From a virus: 64,000 nucleotides of DNA. Positions 16,552-30,543 of this stretch are shown piece by piece. Position 1 is the first letter of the stretch. Each line of letters opens with the position of its first letter. A program made the position numbers and the translations under genes. Where the stretch lies: IMG/VR virus record IMGVR_UViG_3300050821_006280, positions 1-64,000 of that record; one strand, written 5' to 3'. Below the pieces are notes generated by a model. The model made no database searches and had not been told where the DNA came from. It worked only from the letters and a program-made list of their open reading frames with translations.

Positions 16552-17070
16552 CTACGCTACGTCGATTCCAATGATCGTGCTACCGGGGATGATCTGCGCA
16601 TACGCAAACCGACGAACGTTTCCGAGTTGCTTACGCCTGCACGTCACTGTTCGATGGCAGTTAGCACAAAGAAGATCGCATTTCGCAACCTCGTCCATAA
16701 CTTTGATCTTTAAAGCATCAAAAGATGGGAACTTCTTGGCAGGAAAATTAACCGCCTCCGAGACGTTGAACTCCTTGATACCTCGGACATGATCCCACTC
16801 AAATGCTTCCCAATCCCAGAACTCATTCGGAATGGACGGACAGCGCGAACACCCGCCTCTGCTTATTTTCAGTTCAAGCAGAAACTTTTTAATCGGAGTC
16901 CTTTTCTTCTCCTGCCTTAGCTGTCGCTTCTTGTATTCGCACTGACGGCATATCCTGGTCTTACGACAATTTCGTTTCCATATTTTAAGCGGATCAGCAG
17001 GACCAGTCATAAACAACGACTCGTCATTCTCACCGCAAATAGTACAGACCCTGGTCATCGACAACACCAT
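16552..17070 (-). CDS. HNH endonuclease, probably homing-type
   Basis: 172 aa. Two CxxC pairs in the N-terminal half (CTICG near 9-13, CRQC near 41-44), a further CSRC, then the HNH core FEWDHVRG and CDLLCANCHRT near 90-145. This is a DH...CxxCH nuclease of the type found in free-standing phage homing endonucleases. It separates the tail chaperone-like genes from the tape measure gene, normally adjacent in phages, which suggests insertion. No good ribosome site is seen for ATG 17070; ATG 17058 is an alternative. The C-terminal region has no second recognised DNA-binding domain. Confidence 0.8.
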   Translation of the reverse strand: MVLSMTRVCTICGENDESLFMTGPADPLKIWKRNCRKTRICRQCEYKKRQLRQEKKRTPIKKFLLELKISRGGCSRCPSIPNEFWDWEAFEWDHVRGIKEFNVSEAVNFPAKKFPSFDALKIKVMDEVAKCDLLCANCHRTVTCRRKQLGNVRRFAYAQIIPGSTIIGIDVA

Positions 17071-17106: not shown

Positions 17107-17244
17107 CTACCGTCGACCCCGCAGCCTCTCTAAATGCTTCCTTCGTTCGTTCTCTAGATCGCCCTTCTGAAGCATCATTCGTAGTCGTCTCGATGACGGC
17201 ATTTCCATTAGATCTCGATACGACGAGCCCGGCCATACCTCCAT
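17107..17244 (-). CDS. small overlapping tail-chaperone-like protein (45 aa)
   Basis: Starts at the ATG whose A is the last base of the TGA stop of the 262-aa gene (TGATG), and runs 45 codons to a TAG. The peptide begins MEVWPGSSYRDLMEMP and is then rich in Arg/Leu/Met with a helical, basic end. A W...SY.DLM.MP..RR pattern resembles the short products encoded just after tail chaperone genes in other contractile phages. Position between tube and tape measure genes agrees. It may be translated by coupling to the upstream gene. Confidence 0.65.
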   Translation of the reverse strand: MEVWPGSSYRDLMEMPSSRRLRMMLQKGDLENERRKHLERLRGRR

Positions 17245-18032
17245 CAGGTAGAAGATTTCTTGTTCCAGCGTTTCAATACTGCCAAAGGGTTGAAGAAACC
17301 CTCCTGGCTTGGATCTACATTCGCTTGATACTCAGCGGCACAGCTTGGACATTCCATGTCTATACTTGTATCGATACCCCCTTCGTTATCCTCCCAGGCA
17401 TCCCGAAGAAAGTTACGATCCATGAGTCCAAGCACCTTTAAATCTTCTAAGGTACATGGCTTGTCGTTCATGGAATCAATCCGAGCCAGCAACGAGGTTG
17501 AAATCCTATCCTTGCCCGATTGAAGTGCCCTTGCGATCGAATCCTCACCGCGACCTGTCAGTACCTTCATTAGGACTTTGTGACCAGACTTCGGCAGGAC
17601 AATCGGATAGGTTCGTCTCTTCGGATCCGGCATAGCCTTCACCTCCAGCTCCGAGAGATCGACCACGATCTTCTGCTCCTGGTCGCAATGTGGGCACTTG
17701 GAAATGAATGGCATATCGTTTCCTAGGCTCACTCGCCGAATCGCAAACATGATGAAGAAGCGATCACCCTGACAGAGGTCGGGAATGATCTTCTCCATTG
17801 CCGCCTCGCCTCGATAAGGCCCGATAGCGGCTGTACACGCGATCATGAGCCTATTGAGTCTCCTAAACGCCATCATGTTGGTGGCAGCTAAGATCTCCTC
17901 CTCTGGTCCAGTGATTTCACGAATCTCGACCTGAGTGTGAAGCTTTCCGTCTTGATCGATATAACCGCACGGCAGCTCGAAACCATCGACCGAAGACTTC
18001 GGGAGTTCCACTGCTGGGTTCACAGTCTCCAT
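17244..18032 (-). CDS. tail assembly chaperone / T4 baseplate-protein-like, with two CxxC motifs
   Basis: 262 aa. The N-terminal region contains an REITGPEEEILA motif and LIACTAAIGPYRG. Two zinc-ribbon-like pairs are present, CPHC in the middle and CPSC near the C-terminus. This layout is seen in the phage family that includes T4 gp26/gp51-like proteins, and in many myophages the same gene lies between tube and tape measure, where the chaperone belongs. The short overlapping gene after it supports a chaperone pair. The family call is moderate and the zinc role is inferred from Cys spacing. Confidence 0.6.
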   Translation of the reverse strand: METVNPAVELPKSSVDGFELPCGYIDQDGKLHTQVEIREITGPEEEILAATNMMAFRRLNRLMIACTAAIGPYRGEAAMEKIIPDLCQGDRFFIMFAIRRVSLGNDMPFISKCPHCDQEQKIVVDLSELEVKAMPDPKRRTYPIVLPKSGHKVLMKVLTGRGEDSIARALQSGKDRISTSLLARIDSMNDKPCTLEDLKVLGLMDRNFLRDAWEDNEGGIDTSIDMECPSCAAEYQANVDPSQEGFFNPLAVLKRWNKKSST

Positions 18033-18596
18033 CTAGTTGTCCTTGGTATATCCGTCGACTGCCATCAACAGAAGCGACTTGAGGGCATCCGTATAGGATA
18101 TCCCTCGATCGTTACACATGTTTTTGAATAATTCGTACTGATTTCCATCGACCCAACCGTTCACCTTCACGTCGGAACCGATGTCCTGCCAGAGCGCCAT
18201 ATCCTCGAACAGCTCCGGGCTCGCGATAAACGAGTTCATCATTCCCCTAACGACAGAGGAAACGCTCCCGTAGTTGGAACCGTTGCTCGCATAGTCCATC
18301 ACGACCTTGTGAAGCTTGGCGCTGATCAGAAAATTGATTGGTGTCTTGTTGTCGATTCGGGTTGGCAGAACGCGAGCACCTTCAGCAGCGATCCGACAAT
18401 CGCGGCATACTGTTACTCCGTTTTGAGTACGCAGCTTGCCTCCAACTTCAGGAGGAATGATGAAACAAGCAGTGACCTTTCCGACGTTTGTGCAATTGAC
18501 GCACTCGCCCTTGTCACGCTCGATTACTTTTTGCTTCCATTCCTCCAGCGTCTTTACGTCGGAGAGATGTCCAGCTCTGATCTGATCGGTCAACAC
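18033..18596 (-). CDS. degenerate HNH fold fused to ribbon-helix-helix-like domain(s)
   Basis: 187 aa, GTG start. Residues about 24-73 have the HNH scaffold (RDKGECVNC, PPEVGG, NGVTVCRDCR), but the catalytic His pair is replaced (ACFIIP), so a dead nuclease fold is likely. Residues about 84-120 (INFLISAKLHKVV then SVSSVVRGMMNSFI) look like a ribbon-helix-helix DNA-binding domain. A similar unit (KVNGWVDGNQYELFKNM, YTDALKSLLLMAV) follows at 140-183. A promoter overlapped by a near-perfect inverted repeat abuts its start codon, suggesting a self-regulating DNA-binding protein. It sits inside the tail operon and may derive from a homing endonuclease. Confidence 0.6.
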   Translation of the reverse strand: MLTDQIRAGHLSDVKTLEEWKQKVIERDKGECVNCTNVGKVTACFIIPPEVGGKLRTQNGVTVCRDCRIAAEGARVLPTRIDNKTPINFLISAKLHKVVMDYASNGSNYGSVSSVVRGMMNSFIASPELFEDMALWQDIGSDVKVNGWVDGNQYELFKNMCNDRGISYTDALKSLLLMAVDGYTKDN

Positions 18597-18653
18597 GATA
18601 TCCGCAGATAGAAGTAACTATGATTTCTACTTCTATCTGGGGATATCAGTCAA
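18597..18653 (-). promoter_or_regulatory. promoter with embedded inverted-repeat operator
   Basis: Two 20-bp arms, 18597-18616 and 18628-18647, are inverted repeats matching at 19 of 20 positions around an 11-nt centre. On the minus strand TTGACT (18653-18648), an 18-nt spacer made of one arm, and TAGAAA (18629-18624) form a sigma70-like promoter. The second arm ends at the base next to the GTG start at 18596. The layout suits repression by a symmetric DNA-binding protein, probably the product of the adjacent gene. If transcription comes from further upstream, the same repeat would fold into an RNA hairpin up to the start codon. Confidence 0.6.
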
Positions 18654-18926: not shown

Positions 18927-19577
18927 CTACGGTTTCAGCCCAAAGCTAAATTCCTCAATCCACTCCGGCTGAACCTCCAGCGACATTATTGAGATTCCTG
19001 CTGACGAGCCGTCGAAATCAGATCCAGCGACGTAACTTGTGGGAATGCAGTTATGAAGCAACCACGCGCGAGCTGGTATTCTGGCAGCAAATTCAAATGG
19101 TCCAAGAGACACTGCTCCCGGCGGACCAGATGAACCCGGTCCAAGGTTGATCGCTCCGTTTATCCCTGGATTGATTGTCGAGAAGTGCAACACAACGAGA
19201 TTCCGACGAATACCAGGAGCAAGCACATCCACCGTAGACGTGCTCAAGCCTTTTCCAGCCAGCGTGCCGGATACATTCTGGTCATTGGTAATTTTCTGGC
19301 CATAAATCGCGTATGCAATCCAGTCGTAGAAATCTGAATCGAAGAAGCTCGCACCCCGCTCGAACCCAACCGGCTGCACCGACGCACCCTTAATTACAGA
19401 ACGCTGGTACAAGAAAGTACCGTCCTTGAACGTTTCTACGTCAGCATCGATCTTCGGACTTGTAATCCGCGCAAAGCCAAATAGCGGTGTGAATACAGGC
19501 GCTACGATCGGCGCAGAGGCGTCGAAAGCCCAGAATGTGTGTTGCTGGAGAAAATCGGTGATTCGGCTACGAGGCAC
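18927..19577 (-). CDS. tail tube protein paralogue 1 (gp19-like)
   Basis: 216 aa. The pattern FGFARITSPKIDADVETFKDG, a ..GASVQPVGFERGASF strand pair and a DFYDWI motif corresponds to the T4 gp19-like tube fold, in which a strictly spaced beta sandwich is followed by a short helix. The C-terminus (SLEVQPEWIEEFSFG) matches the usual last strand. It is related in layout to the next gene, giving two tandem tube-like genes. One may be the tube and the other a tube-initiator or terminal ring; the sequence does not tell which. Confidence 0.75.
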   Translation of the reverse strand: MPRSRITDFLQQHTFWAFDASAPIVAPVFTPLFGFARITSPKIDADVETFKDGTFLYQRSVIKGASVQPVGFERGASFFDSDFYDWIAYAIYGQKITNDQNVSGTLAGKGLSTSTVDVLAPGIRRNLVVLHFSTINPGINGAINLGPGSSGPPGAVSLGPFEFAARIPARAWLLHNCIPTSYVAGSDFDGSSAGISIMSLEVQPEWIEEFSFGLKP

Positions 19578-19615
19578 GATCAGAAGGATAGCAGAAAGCT
19601 TTACCTCATTGATCG

Positions 19616-30501: not shown

Positions 30502-30543
30502 TAAACGGAAAGGCCAGCAAAGTAGCCCTGGCCTTTCCGTTTA
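30502..30543 (-). terminator. strong hairpin terminator after the capsid gene
   Basis: A perfect 16-bp inverted repeat (30502-30517 and 30528-30543; outer bases TAAACGG / CCGTTTA) with a 10-nt loop lies 18 nt past the stop of the major capsid gene. The outer pairs are A/T, so each strand ends in TTTA, and it could work in both directions. The long U-tract of a classic intrinsic terminator is missing. It probably isolates or stabilises the abundant capsid transcript. The rest of the 30400-30561 gap shows no gene. Confidence 0.8.

What the first reader, a model, noticed from the sequence alone, without database searches (positions are those of the whole stretch)
17107..18653. Self-regulating HNH/RHH gene inside the tail operon
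A gene with a dead HNH fold and ribbon-helix-helix-like units is preceded by a promoter (TTGACT, 18 nt, TAGAAA) overlapped by a 19-of-20-bp inverted repeat that ends at the start codon. RHH proteins bind symmetric repeats of this kind, so autoregulation is the simplest reading. The position, in the middle of a tail operon between tube and chaperone genes, is odd for a regulator and suggests an inserted element that acquired control.
Basis: partly seen in the sequence, partly recalled or inferred. Interest (0 to 1): 0.66.

Follow-up and report, generated by a model that had tools for sequence, protein, structure and literature searches.

The report
Hairpin-gated regulator in phage tail operon
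A conserved gene inside a phage tail-building operon, coding for a nuclease-derived DNA-binding protein that has lost its cutting residues, starts with a folding RNA that probably hides its ribosome site unless the message starts at the gene's own promoter, a trick known from phage T4 but not, as far as I found, described for this gene family.

Summary
In detail: on the minus strand TTGACT-18-TAGAAA and a 19/20-bp inverted repeat (18597-18616/18628-18647) end at the GTG of a 187-aa gene. It is the strongest such repeat in 64 kb. The protein is a degenerate HNH zinc domain plus two RHH units in one chain (TraY-like).

The insertion story is wrong. The gene holds the same operon slot in 8 near relatives and in most distant ones, and is at least as conserved as its structural neighbours.

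A near-identical element, TTGAY-N12/13-TRGARGTA, precedes this gene in every near relative and is otherwise almost absent from their genomes. Each also has a hairpin just before or over the start, with differing arm sequence but kept pairing (14/14 positions, 5 compensatory, in the alignable subset). This looks like RNA, not a fixed protein operator. Predicted transcription starts fall within or after the 5' arm, so read-through mRNA masks the ribosome site while promoter-initiated mRNA frees it, strongly in the window: phage T4 e/I-TevI logic.

Autoregulation stays plausible, but the better operator candidate is the conserved TAGARGTA, not the repeat. Nothing was tested biochemically.

The parts
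18033..18596 (-). 187-aa protein: degenerate HNH zinc domain (about 17-75, CxxC/CxxC kept, catalytic DH absent) plus two ribbon-helix-helix units (about 84-130 and 143-179)
18648..18653 (-). -35 hexamer TTGACT; TTGA[CT] conserved in all near relatives
18628..18635 (-). TAGAAGTA, conserved gene-specific site (TRGARGTA) just upstream of and overlapping -10; candidate operator
18624..18629 (-). -10 hexamer TAGAAA, spacer 18
18617..18617 (-). predicted transcription start (7th base after -10), at the end of the hairpin loop after the 5' arm; inferred, not mapped
18628..18647 (-). 5' arm of the leader hairpin (GATATCCCCAGATAGAAGTA); predicted to be present only in read-through transcripts
18597..18616 (-). 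3' arm (TACTTCTATCTGCGGATATC) holding a weak ribosome site GCGGA next to the GTG start

Best explanation
This is an ancestral tail-operon gene of a phage clade, coding for a nucleic-acid-binding protein (non-catalytic HNH zinc domain fused to a single-chain tandem RHH). It has its own mid-operon promoter and a leader hairpin over the translation start. Transcripts running in from upstream tail genes contain both arms and fold, hiding ribosome site and start codon. Transcripts begun at the gene's own promoter start within or beyond the 5' arm, lack the outer pairs or the whole arm, and can be translated. Expression is thus uncoupled from the surrounding operon, as for T4 e, soc and I-TevI. Most distant relatives carry an intrinsic terminator just upstream instead. 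The protein may also repress its own promoter by binding TAGARGTA. Shown by computation: gene conservation and synteny, conserved promoter-like motif, conserved pairing with changing sequence, predicted masking and unmasking. Inferred: the real start site, the translational effect, timing, and any binding.
For: Synteny and conservation. Motif TTGAY-N10-13-TRGARGTA lies at this gene in every near-clade record, with only single extra hits in two ~195-kb records. Leader folding vs shuffles: significant in 8 of 9 near-clade members (window included), Fisher p about 1e-10, random segments mean z about -0.4. In the four alignable hairpins 14/14 positions keep pairing and 5 carry compensatory changes. 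Initiation-region opening cost in the window is 22.4 kcal/mol read-through vs 7.7 promoter-initiated, the highest of 18 tail genes (others 4.8-16.8); the drop exceeds random positions, Fisher p about 2e-5 over 9 loci. Ribosome sites AGAGG/TGAGG/GGAGG sit in the 3' arm in L013, L014, L016, L017, L023. Terminator before the gene in L106/L107, seen by eye in L105, L108, L109. Precedents: PMC3014915, PMC2988022.
Against: Start sites, -10 boxes and start codons are predicted by eye; several -10 boxes are weak and the promoter scan did not list this one. L012 shows no unmasking and L014 little. L013's leader fold is not significant. L015 carries its GTG inside the 5' arm. Read-through masking alone is above background mainly in the window, L018 and L015; the combined effect leans on these. 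The tube2 start control also had negative fold scores (mean z -1.8), so structure at starts is not exclusive to this gene. Distant relatives other than L110 lack a significant start hairpin. The arm-swap test is partly circular because arms were chosen for pairing, and the compensatory count rests on a hand alignment of four sequences.
Confidence: 0.55

Rival explanations
1. One reading: the inverted repeat is the DNA operator of the RHH protein, which represses its own promoter.
For: RHH proteins are often autoregulators; the repeat overlaps the spacer and -10 in the window and L018. I-TevI autorepression at its own late promoter is a precedent (PMC2988022).
Against: Arm sequences differ between relatives whose RHH strands are nearly invariant; in the others the repeat lies downstream of the -10; pairing uses bulges and G-U pairs. 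A single-chain tandem RHH need not want a symmetric site (PMC12117103).
Confidence: 0.12
2. Autoregulation through the conserved asymmetric site TAGARGTA between -35 and -10, the hairpin being secondary (for example mRNA stability). It is compatible with the best explanation, so the confidences do not sum to one.
For: TRGARGTA is conserved in all near relatives, is essentially specific to this gene in whole contigs, and is more than a -10 box needs. The tandem RHH fold resembles TraY.
Against: Could be a polymerase contact rather than an operator; no site test was possible; distant relatives have GAGGTA only at the ribosome site.
Confidence: 0.4
3. The hairpin is a transcription attenuator, RNase processing site or 5' stabiliser rather than a translation gate.
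For: Terminators sit just upstream of the gene in most distant relatives and between tube genes in others.
Against: No T-run follows the hairpin in the near clade; it abuts or overlaps the start codon or ribosome site in all of them.
Confidence: 0.2

Closest known systems
T4 genes e, soc, 49 and I-TevI: hairpin-masked ribosome sites with a promoter inside or after the 5' arm
   Same: Read-through mRNA predicted to mask the start; promoter-initiated mRNA lacks the 5' arm (PMC3014915, PMC2988022).
   Different: Sigma-70-like -35/-10 instead of the T4 late promoter; protein unrelated to lysozyme, Soc or GIY-YIG; in most relatives only the outer pairs, not the whole arm, are lost; no experiment.
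I-TevI and Aeh1 MobE (HNH) homing endonuclease control
   Same: Nuclease-type gene with hairpin-masked start; I-TevI also autorepresses at its own promoter.
   Different: Here the HNH lacks its catalytic residues, the gene is fixed and syntenic rather than mobile, and it carries tandem RHH units.
F plasmid TraY / VirC2 single-chain tandem RHH
   Same: Foldseek matches over the two-RHH part (9f0y_E prob 0.99, TMt 0.60; VirC2 2rh3 prob 0.21, weaker).
   Different: Extra N-terminal HNH-like zinc domain; phage tail operon; TraY and VirC2 not found by sequence.
HNH endonucleases (PF14279/PF01844, Gme HNH 4h9d, phrog_7370)
   Same: CxxC...CxxC zinc ligands, GG and N of the HNH core.
   Different: Catalytic DH replaced by AC, PR, VD or VK in the members seen; the window protein scores below Pfam cut-offs.

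Membership tests
T4-type RBS-masking hairpin with embedded promoter | Hairpin covers ribosome site and/or start codon | tested here: met
   Window z -8.2; 8 of 9 near-clade members significant; opening cost 22.4 kcal/mol in the window.
T4-type RBS-masking hairpin with embedded promoter | Promoter placed so that its transcript lacks the 5' arm | tested here: inconclusive
   Full arm lost in window and L018; outer pairs lost in most others; no effect in L012; start sites only predicted.
T4-type RBS-masking hairpin with embedded promoter | Read-through mRNA is poorly translated in vivo | not testable with these tools
   Needs a reporter or ribosome profiling.
HNH endonuclease | Catalytic D/H-H-N residues | tested here: not met
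   DH absent in all 13 aligned homologs; N59 kept.
Homing endonuclease / inserted element | Sporadic presence and differing insertion sites | tested here: not met
   Same slot in all near and most distant relatives; only L109 places it farther from the tube genes.
RHH DNA-binding protein | Strand-helix-helix units forming a two-stranded sheet | tested here: met
   By prediction only: AlphaFold model pLDDT 81, E84-91/H93-106/H112-125 and E143-150/H151-163/H168-179; TraY match. Sequence profiles only weak.
RHH autorepressor | Binds an operator at its own promoter | not testable with these tools
   Only conservation of TRGARGTA supports it.

The most novel reading that the evidence does not exclude
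A degenerate HNH/tandem-RHH protein that reads the same GAGGTA signal twice: as DNA in its promoter (TAGAGGTA) and as RNA in its masked ribosome site (AGAGGTA), giving double autoregulation of a conserved tail-operon regulator.
Probability: 0.1. Interest if true: 0.7.

Novelty: new variant of a known kind. Interest (0 to 1): 0.42.

Why it matters
It would extend the T4/I-TevI hairpin-gating logic to unrelated phages using sigma-70-like promoters, and show a nuclease fold without its catalytic residues kept as a fixed, separately controlled member of a tail operon. It gives a compact, testable pair (TRGARGTA site and hairpin) for a protein family with no assigned role.

Tried and rejected
Inserted or mobile element: rejected by synteny and conservation. 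A fixed palindromic operator in the spacer (TATCTCT-N-AGAGGTA): seen in L012 and L016 only, spacing varies, not general (sequences, folds). Arm-swap permutation: 0 of 200,000, but circular because arms were picked for pairing; kept only as illustration. Covariation by MAFFT alignment: arms misaligned, so pairs were tabulated by hand. Isolated phage, bacterial and archaeal genome collections: no homolog. Distant-clade leader motif search: pattern mis-spaced, no hits. A paper search for an HNH-RHH phage tail regulator gave nothing relevant.

Full report
Observation. The minus strand carries TTGACT-18-TAGAAA at 18653-18624 and a 20-nt inverted repeat, 19 pairs, loop 11, at 18647-18628/18616-18597, ending at the GTG of a 187-aa gene. 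No other close inverted repeat in the 64 kb is as strong, and the segment folds far better than dinucleotide shuffles (z -8.2).

The protein. Residues 17-75 match HNH profiles weakly. The CxxC pairs, the GG and one N are kept, but the catalytic DH is absent in all 13 homologs aligned. An AlphaFold model (mean pLDDT 81) shows two strand-helix-helix units. Against the PDB no match reaches E 0.001. Apart from DotN, whose alignments have rmsd 11-17, the best are F TraY in relaxosome structures (prob up to 0.99, TMt about 0.6; that these chains are TraY is my reading of the entries, which hold TraI, TraM, TraY and IHF) and an HNH nicking enzyme (4h9d). F TraY is an RHH dimer fold in one chain (PMC12117103), so symmetric DNA need not be its target.

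Not an insertion. Seven relatives besides a near-identical contig were found at 61-69% identity, an eighth at 60%, and distant ones at about 32%. The order sheath - tube1 - tube2 - small ORF(s) - this gene - gp26-like - tape measure holds in the near clade and in L106; in L105, L108 and L110 the gene lies 1.5-2 kb after tube1 as in L106. No homolog was found in isolated phage records or in bacterial and archaeal genomes by pattern scan. No near relative lacks the gene; two tube-bearing records, G014 and G015, had no match but are fragments.

The promoter element. TTGA[CT]-N12/13-T[AG]GA[AG]GTA precedes this gene in every near-clade record. Across the whole contigs searched only two extra matches occur, in 194- and 197-kb records. 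The TAGARG part is not explained by a -10 box. A site this specific to one gene, upstream of a DNA-binding protein's own start, is the best operator candidate; this is inference.

The hairpin. The window and all 8 near relatives have a hairpin just before or over the start, with different arm sequences. Folding of the -35-to-start segment is significant in 8 of the 9, Fisher p about 1e-10, against random segments with mean z about -0.4. In L012, L014, L016 and L017, 14 of 14 aligned positions pair and 5 show compensatory double changes, with G-U pairs and a 3'-side bulge holding part of the ribosome site. That is an RNA signature rather than that of a DNA site read by a conserved protein.

Gate logic. 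Counting seven bases from the predicted -10 places the start of transcription inside or after the 5' arm. Opening the initiation region costs 22.4 kcal/mol in the window's read-through RNA, the highest of 18 tail-region genes (4.8-16.8 for the rest), and 7.7 in promoter-initiated RNA. Large drops are also seen in L013, L015-L018 and L023, a small one in L014, none in L012. For the two near-leaderless cases (L015, L018) random positions drop by 7-8 kcal/mol anyway, so the excess is smaller. L106/L107 have an intrinsic terminator directly upstream; L105, L108 and L109 show terminator-like sequence there by eye. Distant L110 instead has a hairpin covering both ribosome site and ATG (p 0.003). Either device would uncouple the gene from upstream transcription.

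Known counterparts. T4 e, soc, 49 and I-TevI use the same logic, and I-TevI also represses its own late promoter (PMC3014915, PMC2988022). This case works like those; membership is not proven because no start site or translation effect was measured.

Limits. Promoters and starts are predicted; control gene tube2 also shows structured starts in some phages; hosts, timing and function of the protein are unknown.

Noticed in passing
17107-17301 (-): In-frame -1 slippery heptamers GGGTTTC (17301-17295) and CCCTTTG (17289-17283) near the end of the gp26-like gene; the -1 frame runs to 17107 (60-64 aa) and is conserved, with TTTTTTC in all relatives checked: a likely G/GT-type tail-chaperone frameshift before the tape measure gene.
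   Followed up: partly
16552-17070 (-): A second HNH gene (phrog_2255, E 8e-15) between the gp26-like gene and the tape measure; no homolog in that slot in relatives, while L017 has related sequence after tube2: the likelier mobile insertion.
   Followed up: partly
19577-19600 (-): The tube2 GTG is preceded in the window and several relatives by TGnTAnnnT plus about 7 nt with no clear ribosome site, suggesting an extended -10 promoter and leaderless mRNA.
   Followed up: no
L013 1730-1780, L106 3082-3132: Strong hairpins followed by T-runs between tube1 and tube2, so the tail operon appears split by terminators in some relatives.
   Followed up: no
30502-30543: A perfect 16-bp inverted repeat with a 10-nt loop, not examined.
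   Followed up: no
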